The notes under the pieces: model-generated
Told to the model about the DNA's origin: nothing
Database searches by the model: none
The model's input: the letters and a program-made list of their open reading frames with translations, nothing else
Part shown: positions 2-6,584 of the stretch, piece by piece
Layout: each line of letters begins with the position of its first letter
Position numbering within the stretch: position 1 is the stretch's first letter
Made by a program: the position numbers and the translations under genes
Assembly: GCA_022824225.1 (NCBI GenBank)
Contig: JAJEAH010000026.1
Coordinates: 1 to 57,482, forward strand
Length of the DNA stretch: 57,482 nt
Reading direction: 5' to 3'
Origin: Chloroflexota bacterium
GTDB taxonomy: Bacteria > Chloroflexota > UBA11872 > VXOZ01

Positions 2-1135
2 AGACACCTTCTGGGCGATGGGACTTATGTTGAAGTCCACTTTCGAGAAGATTCTAATATTCCTTACGCTACAACCGCAGAACTAGTCCAAGTGCTGCAA
101 CGACATTATCTGCCACTTCTAGAGCAGTCATTCTTAAAGCTGTACGCCAAGACAGACCTTTACCCGGAGGAACTCCGATTTGTCGTGAATGGTGAGGAGA
201 TAAGGCCATTCGATGCCATTGCTGAGTTTGAGCTTGGCAATGTAGAGAAGACAATCCCTCGACACGGAAAGAAGCCGCTTGGCTATTCAGTGTTTGGGGT
301 GTCTGAACGAGAGTATCCTATTGACCCCAGCCTGGCAGGCATTCTCCTCTGCACCCACGGCAAAGTCATCAAAGCCGACAATCTCGGACAGTTCCCAAGT
401 GGTGACTTGGGGACCCGAATTTTTGGTCTGGTAGAGTTGCCTGGCCTAATCAACTTCGTAACGACTTCCAAGACGGACTTTCGTCCGCGGCCTGGCAAGA
501 ATCGTGACTTCCAGCGCATATACGAAACAATAAGAAACGTGTATAGAGAGTGGCTTACATCGGTTGGCGTCGAGACTGTAGAAGAGAAGAACATCACCGA
601 GGCAAGGCTCCTAGAGCGGGAATTACGAAGACTTTCACAAGAAATTCCCGAATTAGGGGAATTCTTCGGAATTCGTGCACCTCGTTCTGTACTGAGTGCG
701 AATGCAGATGGGCCAATAGAAGCAGACGTTCACGAAGGGCAAGAGAGCACCTTTCCCGATGGAGAAGGGACAAGAGGTGAAGGCCCAGGAGTGGTCGACG
801 CTGGCGACCAGCCGGGTGAAGCTCTGGTGCCTGCTCAAGACGAGGGAGTGCAGAGGGCCGAACCCATTAGTCGTTCAAGTAGGGGTGGGCCGAAGATTTC
901 ATTCAAGGCAGTGGAGGAGCGGCTAGAACTTGGATGGGTCGAAGGGAACACTGTTGTGATAAACACCGGACATCCGGCGTATAAAAGGGTCGAAAAGAAC
1001 CAAGCGGCCCGGCTACTGCACAGCTTGCTGGCAATTGGCACAGCGATCCAGAGACACTTTGGCGATCAGGCTTCAGAGCCAGATCTCATGTTTGTTGACC
1101 GATTGCTAGCTGGCTGGGGAGCACCAAAGCGGTAG
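2..1135 (+). CDS. C-terminal part of a probable GHKL-type (HSP90/MORC-like) ATPase, 5' end outside window
   Basis: The reading frame is open from the first bases of the window, so the gene begins upstream; a GTG at 92 is probably internal. The visible 377 residues lack the Bergerat ATP-binding motifs, which would lie upstream. They resemble the post-ATPase portion of bacterial GHKL ATPases: a compact region with 'RIFGLVELPGLINFVTTSKTDF', then a charged linker rich in Glu and Gly (about residues 230-290), then a C-terminal segment with 'NTGHPAYK'. The stop is 5 bases before the next ATG, indicating one operon with the two following genes. Base composition is clearly lower in G+C than beyond 3640. 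In known systems such ATPases pair with nucleases or DNA-binding partners in prokaryotic conflict systems. The family call is from sequence flavour only, since the diagnostic N-terminus is missing. Confidence 0.5.
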   Translation, partial: RHLLGDGTYVEVHFREDSNIPYATTAELVQVLQRHYLPLLEQSFLKLYAKTDLYPEELRFVVNGEEIRPFDAIAEFELGNVEKTIPRHGKKPLGYSVFGVSEREYPIDPSLAGILLCTHGKVIKADNLGQFPSGDLGTRIFGLVELPGLINFVTTSKTDFRPRPGKNRDFQRIYETIRNVYREWLTSVGVETVEEKNITEARLLERELRRLSQEIPELGEFFGIRAPRSVLSANADGPIEADVHEGQESTFPDGEGTRGEGPGVVDAGDQPGEALVPAQDEGVQRAEPISRSSRGGPKISFKAVEERLELGWVEGNTVVINTGHPAYKRVEKNQAARLLHSLLAIGTAIQRHFGDQASEPDLMFVDRLLAGWGAPKR

Positions 1136-1140
1136 GGTTG

Positions 1141-1608
1141 ATGCGCACTTTCGTATCCTTCGAGCCAACTGCCAACGGGTTCCAGGCAAGCCTCTCCCTT
1201 GAAGAGGCATTCAAGAGCGATAGAGATCCCGCTGCTTTGGCCCAAAAGGCCGAGGAAGTCTACGGAATGAGTATTGCCAAGATGCTAAGGCTTTGCCACC
1301 GTTTGAACCTGTTGCGAGCAGAGAAAAGGCGTACCCCGGCACTCCTGATTTGGGAACTCGGGGACGCGATCTTTGAGTTGCGTCGTGAATTAGGTAGCAC
1401 CTCACTAGAATTAGATGACGTTTACTTTCATCTCACGAGAGACCTTAACGTTCGGCGAAAGTGGCTGGAAAAGGTTGTAATATTCCGAAGATATGTTCAG
1501 GTTAAAGAATTGATCCCAGTAGAGGCATCATGGGGTATATTCGAAAAAGGCACGCGCAGAAAAGCGGAGCAGTTACAGGCCGGGGTGACACTTCGTGAAA
1601 TATCCTAG
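1141..1608 (+). CDS. hypothetical protein, middle gene of the GHKL/HARE-HTH operon
   Basis: I do not recognise this 155-residue protein. It is predicted mostly helical and soluble, rich in Arg, Lys and Glu, with no signal peptide or membrane segment. The centre contains long amphipathic helices ('RLCHRLNLLRAEKRR', 'WELGDAIFELRRELG'), and a basic segment lies near residues 110-145. ATG at 1141 is preferred over the TTG at 1138 because it follows the upstream stop by 5 bases. The next gene starts 6 bases after this stop, so translation is probably coupled. The conserved-looking operon position suggests it is an adaptor between the ATPase and the DNA-binding protein, but this is inference only. 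Confidence 0.7.
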   Translation: MRTFVSFEPTANGFQASLSLEEAFKSDRDPAALAQKAEEVYGMSIAKMLRLCHRLNLLRAEKRRTPALLIWELGDAIFELRRELGSTSLELDDVYFHLTRDLNVRRKWLEKVVIFRRYVQVKELIPVEASWGIFEKGTRRKAEQLQAGVTLREIS

Positions 1609-1614
1609 AGGTCT

Positions 1615-3543
1615 TTGGTCGTGTTGCGGAGAATTGCTGGATGGAGAAAGTTTGCACAGGAGGCGCTAGTCGCCCTCAGAGTCGTTCAATCAGCCTCCCC
1701 GAAAAGGGTTAGCAAGAAAGAAGGCCCGTCTCCCGAGCCCCTTACATCTACCAACTGGTATGGGAGCACCTCACGTAGTTATCCGCAATCGATGGTGAAT
1801 GCCGATGCACTATCGCCTTCAGATGGCGACTACGGTTTCAACGCTTGGTGGATTGATGAAGATGCCGGTAAGCAAGACTTACCTCTCAAGTCAATAGTAG
1901 ACCTACCACAGCTACGAGACTATCTCGCCTCATCGCCTGTGGCAGTCACGCTTGCTAGCCTTTCGGACACGCTCGACATTGGCCTTGAAGCTGAGCAACT
2001 CAAGGATGTCCTACGCCAGGACACACGGTTCATATTTGTTTCTGCTCATGGCGAGAGTTCTCCCGCAGTCCTGCCTAAGACAGCCTTGTTCAATTGGTTT
2101 GTTTGGCTAAACCTAAGGCTTGCAACCACCAAGCAGTTCAGTCTTGCACGAGACCACGTTACGTTTTCGCTCAACAGTAGATTGTTGCCCGCAGGCAAGT
2201 GGTGCAAGCCACCACCTGAGCTAATGAATTGGGGAGCTAGGTTGCATCTTGTTCGTCAAGGCTCATTTGATGGCAGTTTCCAATTTCCACTCGCCAGAGT
2301 GCTTTCCAACCTGCCATCGGAGATGGCTATTGTTGCAAGAGAAGTGCTAAGTGAGTTCGCCGAAATTGGGATCTGGGGTTGTTCCTTTTCTGAAGTGCGC
2401 AAACAGAATATGGATGAGGTCTTTGCGTTTTGTCCTGAGAGGTCAGTTGAAGTAGTCAAGCTAAGGGAAGGGCTCGAAGAGGATAGCACTTCCCACCTCT
2501 CTCTGGAGCAAGTGGGTCAGCAACGTGGGTTGACGCGGGAGCGAATCAGGCAAATAGAAAAGGGGTTCTATGAGTCCATTTGCCAACAGAAGGTTACCAA
2601 CATTGTAAGGCTGAAGAGAACTCAGTTCCAATGGCAGCTTAGTCGCAACGGTGAGGTCATTGTGCGTGCTGGACACCGACGCCGCCTAGAGGAAGACTTT
2701 ACGGATTCGCGTTCCCGCAGGCGTCTGGCATCTCGGCTAATTGCCTCTTTGCTGTGCGAAGTACTAGAGTCTGGCGATGTAGTGATGAATTCAAGATCGC
2801 TAAAGGCGCGTCGAAGGTCCTTTTTAGCAAAGTGCTGCGGTATACCAGTTGCGTTGGACAATGGTCTCCAGGTACTTGCCATGGATTCTGGGAGACTTAG
2901 AGACGCACTTCGAGGGCCTGAAGGAACACCTAGAAGAAGCTTGAACGGCATTCGTATGGCGGTTAAATGGGCAATCACAGAGTTGGATGAGAACGGAATT
3001 TCAGGGGAGATTACTAATGAGATTCGCGCCAATTGGTACAAACGTCTTGCCAAGACAGAAAAAGTGCGTTTAACACTCCTGAGTATCGGTAAGCCTGCAC
3101 ACTTTAGTGAGGTCACAGCGATATACAATTCAATGTGGATTAACGATTATTCTTCCGAACGCACAATTCACGGCAATCTTGATAGGGCAACCAATGGCAT
3201 AGTGTGGGTAGGTGCGAAGGGAACATTTGCCCTCCGCGAATGGGGATATGAACAACCAGACAAAAGTCTATTTGAGCTCGCTTCACAGACCATTAGGGGC
3301 AAGTACGCTGAAACTGGCAGGCCAGTTCCCTTCACCGTCTTCGCAACAGAGATGGCCAAGACTCGGAGACACATTAACCCGTCGAGCCTGCAATTTGCTG
3401 TTAGCTTCAATTCCGATGTGCGTCGCGTAGGCAAGGACTCATTTGTTCCAGTGGATGAGACCACGGCAACGAATGACACGGCTGGGGGTAGTAGCAATTG
3501 GGAACAAGCATTGAAGGAGTTTGAAGAAGAAGCACTCAACTAG
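1615..3543 (+). CDS. DNA-binding protein with sigma-70 region-4-like HTH and HARE-HTH-like domain
   Basis: This 642-residue protein carries a clear sigma-70 region-4-type helix-turn-helix at about residues 295-320 ('[20 protein letters not shown]'), yet no sigma region 2 (core polymerase and -10 binding) is visible. Residues about 483-543 look like a HARE-HTH/ASXL winged helix: 'LLSIGKPAHFSEVTAIYN', then a short helix and a terminal 'GTFALREWG' hairpin. HARE-HTH domains are known in the RNA polymerase delta subunit and in proteins tied to DNA modification or restriction. The N-terminal 280 residues are unassigned. The start is TTG 1615 or GTG 1621, six or twelve bases after the previous stop. 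It is the last gene of the AT-rich operon. A role as a sequence-specific sensor or recruiter for the upstream ATPase is inferred. Confidence 0.6.
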   Translation: MVVLRRIAGWRKFAQEALVALRVVQSASPKRVSKKEGPSPEPLTSTNWYGSTSRSYPQSMVNADALSPSDGDYGFNAWWIDEDAGKQDLPLKSIVDLPQLRDYLASSPVAVTLASLSDTLDIGLEAEQLKDVLRQDTRFIFVSAHGESSPAVLPKTALFNWFVWLNLRLATTKQFSLARDHVTFSLNSRLLPAGKWCKPPPELMNWGARLHLVRQGSFDGSFQFPLARVLSNLPSEMAIVAREVLSEFAEIGIWGCSFSEVRKQNMDEVFAFCPERSVEVVKLREGLEEDSTSHLSLEQVGQQRGLTRERIRQIEKGFYESICQQKVTNIVRLKRTQFQWQLSRNGEVIVRAGHRRRLEEDFTDSRSRRRLASRLIASLLCEVLESGDVVMNSRSLKARRRSFLAKCCGIPVALDNGLQVLAMDSGRLRDALRGPEGTPRRSLNGIRMAVKWAITELDENGISGEITNEIRANWYKRLAKTEKVRLTLLSIGKPAHFSEVTAIYNSMWINDYSSERTIHGNLDRATNGIVWVGAKGTFALREWGYEQPDKSLFELASQTIRGKYAETGRPVPFTVFATEMAKTRRHINPSSLQFAVSFNSDVRRVGKDSFVPVDETTATNDTAGGSSNWEQALKEFEEEALN

Positions 3544-3639: not shown

Positions 3640-5148
3640 TTGGCTAAGCAACCGAATATCCTCCTGATCATGTCCGACCAGCAGCAGTACGCCACGGCGG
3701 GGCCGGCGGCGGATGGATATTCGCCAAATCTGGAGCGGCTGGCGCGGGAGGGCATCTGGTTCCGGCGGGGGTATACCGTCACGACGCCGTGCGCGCCGGC
3801 GCGGGCTTCCATCGCCACGGCCGTCTATCCCCACGCGCACCACGTCCTGAATAACTGCCACGTGCCGTATGCCGTGAGCCGTGAGATCCGCGACGGCGTG
3901 CCCTCGTGGGGTCCGCTCATGAGCGCGGCGGGGTATCGCATGCGCTACGCCGGCAAGGCCCACATCGGCTGGGAACGCGGTCCGGTGGAGTACGGCTTCG
4001 ACACCGAGGACCGCGAATTCGACCGGGCGGCCTACCTGCGCGACCACCGGATTCGCACCGAGCAACAGGGCGGCGTGCCGCGCGGCACGGCCATGGATGG
4101 GCCCGCGCCGGGCATGTGGGGTTTTCACGACGCGGCCGGCGTCTACTGGCGGCACTACGGCGTGGAGGACCGCCCGCCGGAAGCCACCACCACCGCCATG
4201 CAAGCCGCGGCGGGCCTGCAACAGTTGCGCGCCCTGGCCGATGAGGCCAGCAGCCAGCCGTGGTGCCTGTGGATGAACTTTACCGGCCCGCACAATCCCT
4301 ACGTGGTGCCGAAAGAGTACGCCGACCGTTTCGACTGGCGCGACGTGCCGCCGCCGCCGAGCTTCTACACGGACAGCGCCGCCAAACCCGCCTACGTGCG
4401 CCGGGCCCGGGAAACGTGGTTCCGGGAAGTCGATGAAGAACACACCCGCAAGTCCAACGCCCACTACCGGGCGTATTGCAACCTGATCGACCACTACGTG
4501 GGCACGGTGCTCGATTTCTTGGATGAGACCGGCCAGGCGGAAAATACGGTGGTGGTCTATACCTCCGACCACGGCGACATGATGGGCGCGCACGGCTTGT
4601 GGTTCAAGGACATTTGGCCGTATGAAGAGACCCACCGCATGCCGTACATCATGCGCTGGCCGGCGGGCTTCGCGGCGGGCCAGGTGTGCGACGACTACGT
4701 GCGCACTCTCGATCTGGGCCCGACGTTTCTGGACCTGGCAGGCGCGGAGCCGCTGGCGGGCGCGCACGGCATCTCCCTGGCCCCGCTTCTGAACGGCGAA
4801 CAGAACGCCGGAGACCGGGTCGAGCACCGTGAGCTCTTCCTGCAAGACCACGGCAACATCTTCTACTTCATGAACCGCACGGTCTGCGACGGCCGCTACA
4901 AGTTCGTCTTCAACGGCTTCGACTACGACGAACTCTACGACCTGGAAGCAGACCCCTACGAGACGTACAATTTGGCGGAGAATCCGCACTGCGCCGACGT
5001 GCGGGAGCGGCTGCAGGACCGCCTGTGGGACTGGATGCTGCGGCTGGAAGACCCCTATGCGGGGCGGTTGTACGCCGCCAACGTCATCCTGGGCCGCAGC
5101 GAGCCGCCGCCCTTGCGGCGCGATCCCGCCCCGCGCCCGCAACTCTAG
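3640..5148 (+). CDS. sulfatase (arylsulfatase/choline-sulfatase type)
   Basis: This is a full-length 502-residue sulfatase of the alkaline phosphatase superfamily, hydrolysing a sulfate ester. Asp13 in 'LIMSDQQ' is a metal ligand. Cys51 in 'CAPARAS' fits the C-x-P-x-R signature, whose Cys must be converted to formylglycine by an activating enzyme not seen here. 'YTSDHGDMMGAHG' supplies the second Asp-His metal site. No signal peptide is evident, so a cytoplasmic location is likely. The start is TTG 3640: an in-frame stop lies only 10 bases upstream and the N-terminus aligns well there. G+C jumps to the genome-typical level at this gene, marking the end of the AT-rich island. The natural substrate cannot be told. 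Confidence 0.93.
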   Translation: MAKQPNILLIMSDQQQYATAGPAADGYSPNLERLAREGIWFRRGYTVTTPCAPARASIATAVYPHAHHVLNNCHVPYAVSREIRDGVPSWGPLMSAAGYRMRYAGKAHIGWERGPVEYGFDTEDREFDRAAYLRDHRIRTEQQGGVPRGTAMDGPAPGMWGFHDAAGVYWRHYGVEDRPPEATTTAMQAAAGLQQLRALADEASSQPWCLWMNFTGPHNPYVVPKEYADRFDWRDVPPPPSFYTDSAAKPAYVRRARETWFREVDEEHTRKSNAHYRAYCNLIDHYVGTVLDFLDETGQAENTVVVYTSDHGDMMGAHGLWFKDIWPYEETHRMPYIMRWPAGFAAGQVCDDYVRTLDLGPTFLDLAGAEPLAGAHGISLAPLLNGEQNAGDRVEHRELFLQDHGNIFYFMNRTVCDGRYKFVFNGFDYDELYDLEADPYETYNLAENPHCADVRERLQDRLWDWMLRLEDPYAGRLYAANVILGRSEPPPLRRDPAPRPQL

Positions 5149-6075: not shown

Positions 6076-6584
6076 GAGCAGCGACTGACGGCGCTCTCGC
6101 CCGCAGCGGAAGTGGCAGCCATGTAGACTGAGCCACGTTGATGCAAGAAAAGTGCCTGCCGCCCAGTCCGTCACTCCGGCGGATGCCGGAGTCCAGGGCA
6201 CGCGGCAAAGATGGATTCCGGCGTGGGCCGGAATGACAGGAGAATCCGCGTGCCGAGCCGCAGTGACGAGGCCCGGCGGCATGATCGGTCGAAAATCCAT
6301 TCATGCGCCACAGCGACGACAACCGCGCTGATTGGCGGAACCGTCTTGGCGTCACCCATGCCGCCCCACCTGCCCCGTACACATCCCAACTCCGCTCACG
6401 TCCCGCGCCGCGTTGGCGCGCTGCCGGACGTACTCTATCCATAGGCCGTGTGGTAGCGTATGCTCAGGTAGTGCGCGCAGAGGCGGGAGGCCGCCGCACG
6501 CGACCACGCCATGGGTTCCCGCGGCGCAACCGCCGGGCGGAGGCGTTCGCCGCTAGAGATCGCAGGCTCCAGAGCAAACCACCT
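6076..6584. other. intergenic region holding a REP/MITE-like inverted repeat
   Basis: There is no convincing gene in this stretch. The open frame that continues upstream of 6585 is Arg-rich and lacks a start with a ribosome-binding site, so it is not taken as coding. The imperfect inverted repeat at 6170-6237 is the only clear structure. Confidence 0.6.
6170..6237. repeat. REP/MITE-like imperfect inverted repeat
   Basis: The left arm (6170-6196) and right arm (6212-6237) are reverse complements except at a few positions, following the pattern GTCA-Y-TCCGGC-NNNN-GCCGGA-R-TCCA. Each arm is itself a small hairpin (TCCGGC/GCCGGA). The central spacer is about 15 bases. Such elements are typical of dispersed non-coding repeats that multiply in intergenic space; only one complete copy is seen in this window. 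Confidence 0.7.

What the first reader, a model, noticed from the sequence alone, without database searches (positions are those of the whole stretch)
2..3543. Three-gene GHKL ATPase / small protein / sigma4-HARE-HTH operon, possible new conflict system
Seen: three genes 5-6 bases apart in an AT-richer block that ends sharply at 3640. Known: GHKL/MORC-type ATPases occur in restriction-modification-like loci, and HARE-HTH domains link to DNA modification and RNA polymerase delta. Inference: a DNA-surveillance system with an ATPase, an adaptor and a DNA reader. I do not know of this exact trio as a described system. The ATPase N-terminus is outside the window.
Basis: partly seen in the sequence, partly recalled or inferred. 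Interest (0 to 1): 0.75.

Follow-up and report, generated by a model that had tools for sequence, protein, structure and literature searches.

The report
Mobile three-gene ATPase and promoter-reader cassette
Three neighbouring genes (an ATP-driven DNA-clamp-type protein, a small probable DNA-binding protein, and a protein that joins the promoter-reading domain of a sigma factor to four winged helices) travel together as a unit between distantly related bacteria, and no described system has this make-up, but what they do is not yet known.

Summary
Three abutting genes (window 2-1135, 1138-1608, 1615-3543) form a low-GC insertion (about 0.50 against 0.65) with a sharp right edge at 3640. The missing start of the ATPase is on another contig of the same genome and carries all Bergerat motifs. 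Two sister genomes have the empty site, with the flanking genes directly joined.

The trio recurs, always in the same order, in five complete copies elsewhere: three in another class of Chloroflexota and two in Armatimonadota. Contig-cut and decayed copies also exist. It sits among unrelated housekeeping genes. In one genome it is wedged between gatC and gatA, which abut in relatives. Identities of the three proteins co-vary (r 0.88-0.96), and the identity pattern suggests transfer between phyla.

P1 is a GHKL-S5 (MutL/MORC-like) ATPase with no nuclease match. P2 is a well-modelled small protein with a weakly ParB-like fold. P3 is WH-WH-sigma4-WH-WH with an intact -35-reading helix but no sigma region 2, so it is not a true sigma factor. 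HARE-HTH was not confirmed.

The closest known system is MZA (sigma4 protein plus GHKL ATPase), but its other three components are absent. My best guess is an ATP-gated DNA clamp guided to promoter-like DNA that silences foreign DNA. A defence role is plausible but unproven: no neighbour tested is a known defence gene.

The parts
2..1135 (+). P1: GHKL-S5 (MutL/MORC-like) ATPase, C-terminal 377 residues; the N-terminal 125 residues are on contig C79 of the same genome
   Evidence: ORF; N-terminus at G000:C79:2-373(-); HATPase_c_3 in full-length relatives (8e-13); alignment of motifs
338..370 (+). S5-domain motif GILLCTHGKVI, resembling the MORC motif GhXhhpXXRhl but with K for R
   Evidence: searches compared with PMC2292703; K in all six sequences that cover it
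1138..1608 (+). P2: 156-residue protein, beta hairpin plus helices with a basic, strongly conserved RRKWLEKVVIFRRY helix; predicted DNA-binding
   Evidence: model mceccf7562075 pLDDT 93, pTM 0.88; weak ParB DNA-binding-domain resemblance Z 5.8
1615..3543 (+). P3: WH-WH-sigma4-WH-WH protein (642 residues from TTG 1615)
   Evidence: model of homologue L039, pLDDT 80; fold matches
1903..2325 (+). P3 N-terminal pair of winged helices (SelB-like)
   Evidence: 2v9v Z 9.9, 1wsu Z 9.2 on residues 1-140 of homologue L039; mapped through
2389..2565 (+). P3 sigma-70 region 4
   Evidence: 5.7e-5; profile to SigA 6.6e-15; MzaA sigma4 2.4e-14 in L039
2533..2559 (+). -35 recognition helix TRERIRQIE, identical to housekeeping SigA
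3031..3255 (+).
   Evidence: fold (I73R Z 9.2); no Pfam HARE-HTH match
3256..3465 (+). P3 winged helix 4
   Evidence: MCM C-terminal WH (2ma3) Z 9.7 over 64 residues
3544..3639 (.). right edge of the insertion; homology to sister genomes resumes at 3640-3645 (sulfatase gene)

Best explanation
A self-contained, horizontally acquired three-gene cassette. Shown: obligate trio, complete operon, insertion into different intergenic sites, GHKL ATPase motifs, an intact -35-reading sigma4 helix. From prediction: P3 carries four winged helices around sigma4 and P2 is a small folded, probably DNA-binding protein. Inferred mechanism: P1 dimerises on ATP binding like MutL/MORC and closes as a clamp on DNA. 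P3, which reads -35-like promoter DNA but lacks the sigma region 2 needed to open it, brings P1 (with P2) to promoter-dense or otherwise marked DNA. The ATP-locked complex then blocks transcription there. Its selective value would most likely be silencing of incoming plasmid or phage DNA.
For: Trio order is kept in L039, L040, L042, L041, L051 and L043. Identities of P1, P2 and P3 correlate at r 0.88-0.96, and Armatimonadota copies are closer to the other Chloroflexota copies than the window's is. Empty sites exist in G077/G117 and in relatives of G595. Trio GC stays at 0.49-0.54 in three hosts of GC 0.47-0.69. GHKL. MutL is the closest solved relative of P1 (0.004). Sigma4. Sigma4 plus a helix at the place of the RNA-polymerase flap tip superposes on 7kug_D over 96 of 96 residues, Z 11.9. 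No Pfam, PADLOC, PHROG or NCBIfam match to a nuclease catalytic domain in the three proteins; the 'REase_II' and BbrUII matches of P1 cover only the GHKL domain. No fourth conserved gene beside the trio.
Against: No defence gene among the neighbours tested and no defence island. Housekeeping contexts could suit a regulatory role. No binding, ATPase or phage data. One homologue (L041) has a degenerate recognition helix, TRMRVWHLE. P1's C-terminal region was not modelled and could hide an unrecognised activity. The clamp model rests on analogy to MutL and MORC.
Confidence: 0.38

Rival explanations
1. A reduced relative of the MZA / paraMORC class of restriction-like defence: the P1 ATPase and the P3 reader license a nuclease that is encoded elsewhere in the genome or hidden in an unrecognised domain of P1 or P2.
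For: MZA pairs a sigma4 protein (MzaA) with a GHKL ATPase (MzaB). P3's sigma4 scores better against MzaA (53 bits) than RpoD (42 bits) in L039. paraMORCs typically sit in R-M operons.
Against: No nuclease, helicase or methylase beside any copy (ruvC beside L051 is a housekeeping gene). P1-MzaB similarity is only the generic ATPase core (E 0.058). Z1, PD-(D/E)XK and AIPR partners absent.
Confidence: 0.25
2. A transcriptional regulatory cassette: P1 acts as a switch or kinase on P3, which binds promoters and controls host genes, in the manner of SpoIIAB/AA or CapK/CapS.
For: P3 is made only of DNA-binding modules including sigma4. CapK/CapS show a GHKL kinase paired with a winged-helix repressor (PMC13373217). 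Copies lie amid housekeeping operons.
Against: P1 belongs with S5-domain MutL/MORC-like ATPases, not the anti-sigma kinases. No STAS domain. Patchy, laterally moving distribution (1 of 400, 2 of 291) is unusual for a core regulator. P3 has no sigma region 2.
Confidence: 0.22
3. A DNA-repair accessory: P1 works like MutL as a clamp that recruits host nucleases to lesions found by P2/P3.
For: MutL is the best solved relative and gives several NCBIfam hits.
Against: Similarity is limited to the GHKL core. No MutL endonuclease motif region matched. A promoter-type reader is hard to square with lesion detection.
Confidence: 0.1
4. A decaying selfish or neutral insertion without present function.
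For: Remnant of P3 alone in G122; the window copy is the most divergent.
Against: All three reading frames are intact in six genomes across two phyla, with 43-69% (P1, P2) and 30-48% (P3) identity; random drift would have broken them.
Confidence: 0.05

Closest known systems
MZA (mzaABCDE) anti-phage system
   Same: Pairs a protein with sigma-70 region 4 (MzaA) with a GHKL ATPase of similar size (MzaB, 480 residues).
   Different: Z1 ATPase, PD-(D/E)XK and AIPR proteins absent. P3 has sigma4 in the middle with winged helices on both sides, while MzaA has it at the C-terminus. P1-MzaB similarity is only the ATPase core (PMC9523054).
Prokaryotic MORC / paraMORC1-5 GHKL-S5 ATPases (Iyer et al. 2008, PMC2292703)
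   Same: N-terminal GHKL with all motifs followed by an S5-like region; patchy distribution; S5 motif GILLCTHGKVI close to the MORC signature.
   Different: R of the MORC motif is K. No helicase, methylase or nuclease in the operon. No paraMORC3-type nuclease or paraMORC4 TIR domain matched.
CapK/CapS (and SpoIIAB/SpoIIAA) GHKL kinase-repressor pairs (PMC13373217)
   Same: GHKL protein encoded next to a winged-helix DNA-binding protein.
   Different: CapK is HTH-STAS-GHKL kinase and CapS is STAS-wHTH; no STAS domain or anti-sigma-type kinase match here.
Shedu type I-D (VcSduA, paraMORC3; PMC12137116)
   Same: GHKL ATPase of the paraMORC class in a self-contained mobile unit.
   Different: VcSduA carries its own DUF4263 nuclease; none found in P1.

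Membership tests
GHKL ATPase superfamily | Bergerat motifs I-IV (catalytic Glu/Asn, DxGxG, glycine-rich lid, GT) | tested here: met
   TELVANSLDA, EDNGNGM, GTTIGFAGVGAK on C79 and GTYVEV at the window start; Pfam HATPase_c_3 in relatives
MORC family proper | GhXhhpXXRhl motif in the S5 domain | tested here: not met
   K in place of R in all copies covering the motif
paraMORC restriction-modification operons | neighbouring restriction helicase, methylase or nuclease gene | tested here: not met
   flanking genes are housekeeping or metabolic in all copies
MZA (mzaABCDE) | MzaB-type GHKL ATPase | tested here: not met
   P1 against NF041932 only E 0.058, 11.7 bits against a cut-off of 850; no PADLOC MzaB match
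MZA (mzaABCDE) | MzaA-type sigma4 protein | tested here: not met
   sigma4 domain only, 53 bits against a cut-off of 800
MZA (mzaABCDE) | Z1, PD-(D/E)XK and AIPR genes in the operon | tested here: not met
   only three genes in every copy
Sigma-70 factors | region 4 with -35 recognition helix | tested here: met
Sigma-70 factors | region 2 (-10 recognition and melting) | tested here: not met
   no Pfam Sigma70_r2 match at E 1-10 in any P3
HARE-HTH | match to the HARE-HTH family in the C-terminal winged helix | tested here: inconclusive
   winged-helix fold and a suggestive GTFALREWG pattern, but no Pfam HARE-HTH hit up to E 10 for four homologues and no RNAP-delta hit in PDB sequences
Anti-phage defence system | protection against phage or plasmid | not testable with these tools
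   needs an experiment
Anti-phage defence system | linkage to known defence genes | tested here: not met
   no PADLOC match among 10 flanking proteins from six loci
ParB-type DNA-binding domain (for P2) | shared fold | tested here: inconclusive
   best Z 5.8 over 94-98 residues for ParB/Spo0J, VirB and KorB lower in the list; phage ParB-like proteins at top of BFVD with E above 0.2

The most novel reading that the evidence does not exclude
A nuclease-free bacterial silencing system: a MORC-like ATP-gated DNA clamp steered by a non-transcribing sigma4 reader, whose polymerase-binding face is covered by its own helix, that shuts promoters on foreign DNA, mechanistically parallel to eukaryotic MORC silencing of transposons.
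Probability: 0.22. Interest if true: 0.88.

Novelty: new variant of a known kind. Interest (0 to 1): 0.56.

Why it matters
If the promoter-silencing reading holds, bacteria would have a MORC-type system that silences rather than cuts foreign DNA, giving a simple three-protein model for how GHKL-S5 clamps act in silencing. Even without that, the trio is a compact, recurring module in Chloroflexota and Armatimonadota that no searched library describes. Its insertions leave clean empty sites, and it carries an unusual repurposing of sigma region 4.

Tried and rejected
Single-sequence scans of genome contigs, viral contigs, plasmids and phages found no full-length relatives; the profile route was needed. 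Viral scans with P1 and P2 profiles found nothing. The P3 profile returned only sigma-factor region 4 matches in viral contigs, so I do not claim viral copies. Most P3 hits in the phylum search cover only the sigma4 segment, as ordinary RpoD would. The Deinococcus plasmid sigma-like protein has no annotated GHKL neighbour. The Burkholderia GHKL protein next to a cytosine methylase matches P1 only in the ATPase core. P2 shows no Pfam, PADLOC, NCBIfam or PHROG match of note; its Foldseek matches to solved structures are all insignificant, and the absence of a match does not prove a new fold. A palindrome upstream of P1 in the window genome is not shared by relatives, so it is not claimed as a system part.
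Full report
WHAT IS THERE. The window is a whole contig (C45) of a 3.37 Mb, 87-contig genome. Its first 3.5 kb holds three same-strand ORFs: 2-1135 (open at the 5' end), 1138-1608 and 1615-3543, spaced 2-5 and 6 bases. GC is 0.48-0.56 there and 0.60-0.72 after 3.6 kb.

THE MISSING START. A search of the window's own genome with the N-terminal part of a relative's ATPase found residues 2-124 at the very start of contig C79, on the reverse strand, and the next stretch at the start of C45. Read in its direction, C79 ends with MTVHEST...TELVANSLDA...EDNGNGM...GTTIGFAGVGAK...SDWYFAAK. About ten residues are lost at the break. So the operon is complete in the genome and the ATPase has the Bergerat motifs.

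IT IS AN INSERTION. Upstream of the trio C79 carries a chaperonin gene (Pfam Cpn60) and a small membrane-protein gene. In the sister genomes G077 (L030) and G117 (L034) the same upstream sequence is followed directly, after 138-195 bp, by the sulfatase gene that in the window starts at 3640. The trio is therefore an acquired block of roughly 4 kb at a site that is empty in relatives. None of the five other members of the genus searched has the genes.

IT RECURS AS A TRIO. A profile of the third protein found three intact relatives and one C-terminal remnant among 393 genomes of another class of the phylum. Their neighbourhoods hold the same three genes in the same order. A scan with the ATPase profile then gave further loci, among them L041 from a record titled Armatimonadetes, L043 (Dehalococcoidia, ATPase cut by the contig end, genes two and three intact) and L044 (contig ends inside the ATPase). 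A scan of 291 genomes of the phylum of L041 with the second protein gave one more complete trio, L051. The trio is rare: second protein in 1 of 400 sampled genomes of the window's phylum (the window's own), 2 of 291 of the other.

IT MOVES. The flanking genes differ at each locus and are housekeeping or metabolic: seryl-tRNA synthetase and an aminoacetone-oxidase-family flavoprotein nearby (L025), prolyl- and phenylalanyl-tRNA synthetases (L026), gatC and gatA (L027), an amidase (L043), PEP carboxykinase with an aminotransferase (L041), ruvC (L051). In L027 the trio lies in the few bases between gatC and gatA, which abut in relatives L060, L062 and L069. Its GC is 0.49-0.54 in three hosts of 0.47-0.69. 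Pairwise identities of the three proteins correlate (r 0.92, 0.88, 0.96), and the Armatimonadota copies are closer to the L039/L040/L042 group (P1 54-60%) than the window copy is (51-53%), which points to transfer between phyla. In L026 a 42-base, 81% identical copy of the proS 3' end follows the trio, a hint that recombination at gene ends brings it in. No integrase or transposase accompanies it in the loci read.

THE PROTEINS. P1 (about 505 residues): HATPase_c_3 in relatives at 8e-13 to 3e-10. Best solved relatives are MutL (0.004) and, weakly, MORC2. The S5-region motif GILLCTHGKVI is near the MORC signature given in PMC2292703 with K for R; the S5 assignment itself is my reading of this motif and of the family's architecture, not a database match. 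The 'REase_II' and TmtA matches in PADLOC and BbrUII in NCBIfam cover only the ATPase core. P2 (about 158 residues): no family match of note; a confident model (pLDDT 93, pTM 0.88) with a long helix, a helix-turn-helix-like end and the conserved stretch RDLGVKRKWLEKVIIFRRY. VIA-align gives ParB-type domains at Z 5.8, below the level that can be trusted. P3: sigma region 4 (profile to SigA 6.6e-15) with the -35-reading helix TRERIRQIE identical to SigA. There is no region 2 match. The model of L039 P3 (pLDDT 80) matches SelB winged helices at the N-terminus (Z 9-10), sigma4, and two further winged helices at the C-terminus (I73R Z 9.2; MCM Z 9.7). The sigma4 part, with the following strand and helix, superposes on the sigma4-flap-tip chimera 7kug_D over all 96 residues (Z 11.9), more than on sigma alone (about 9). 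I read this, as inference from a predicted model only, as a sign that P3's own helix covers the polymerase-binding face. HARE-HTH was not confirmed.

HOW IT MAY WORK. Shown: a conserved, complete, laterally moving operon of an ATPase with intact motifs, a small protein and a protein with an intact promoter-reading helix, and no recognisable nuclease, helicase or methylase. Predicted: the winged helices of P3 and the fold of P2. Inferred from MutL and MORC: P1 closes on DNA on binding ATP. Inferred: P3 directs it to promoter-like DNA without starting transcription, and the result is silencing, most usefully of foreign DNA. Confidence in the cassette itself is above 0.95; in the mechanism about 0.38.

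COMPARISON. MZA also pairs sigma4 with a GHKL ATPase, and P3's sigma4 is nearer to MzaA than to RpoD (53 against 42 bits in L039), but the other MZA genes and full-length similarity are lacking, so it is not filed as MZA. paraMORC operons have helicases and nucleases; these do not. CapK/CapS pair a GHKL kinase with a STAS repressor; no STAS is found here. Shedu I-D has its own nuclease. Hence 'new variant of a known kind'.

LIMITS. All relatives are metagenome-assembled as far as their records are named. The scan of genome contigs relied on short peptide patterns and will miss copies. P1 was not modelled. The genome sampling covered at most 1,644 genomes in two phyla. No defence gene adjoins any copy tested, so the defence label rests on mobility and on the kinds of protein alone.

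Noticed in passing
G000 contig C79 (L056), about 35-65 bases upstream of the P1 start: Perfect inverted repeat TACTAGGC-ACGTATCG-GCCTAGTA overlapping a TATACT -10-like box just upstream of P1; not present in relatives. Could be an autoregulatory operator.
   Followed up: partly
L026 11314-11355: A 42-base stretch 81% identical to the 3' end of proS follows the trio, whose 5' side is proS itself: possible footprint of homologous recombination at a gene end.
   Followed up: partly
L027 9103-12871: The trio splits gatC and gatA, genes that abut in relatives, and its last stop overlaps the gatA start; it would be co-transcribed with a housekeeping operon.
   Followed up: partly
window about 6160-6240: A roughly 70-base element with dozens of dispersed copies in this genome and its sisters; encodes fragments like 'VIPAHAGI / CHSGPRRNP' in ORF lists; looks like a short dispersed repeat family.
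   Followed up: no
L003 1486-1881 (G122 C11): A free-standing C-terminal remnant of P3 (two winged helices) without P1, P2 or sigma4 nearby in the stretch read: a decayed copy or a small derived protein.
   Followed up: no
L022, L023, L024 (G635): Three weak matches to the P3 winged helix 3 on small contigs of one genome; may be a diverged relative family.
   Followed up: no
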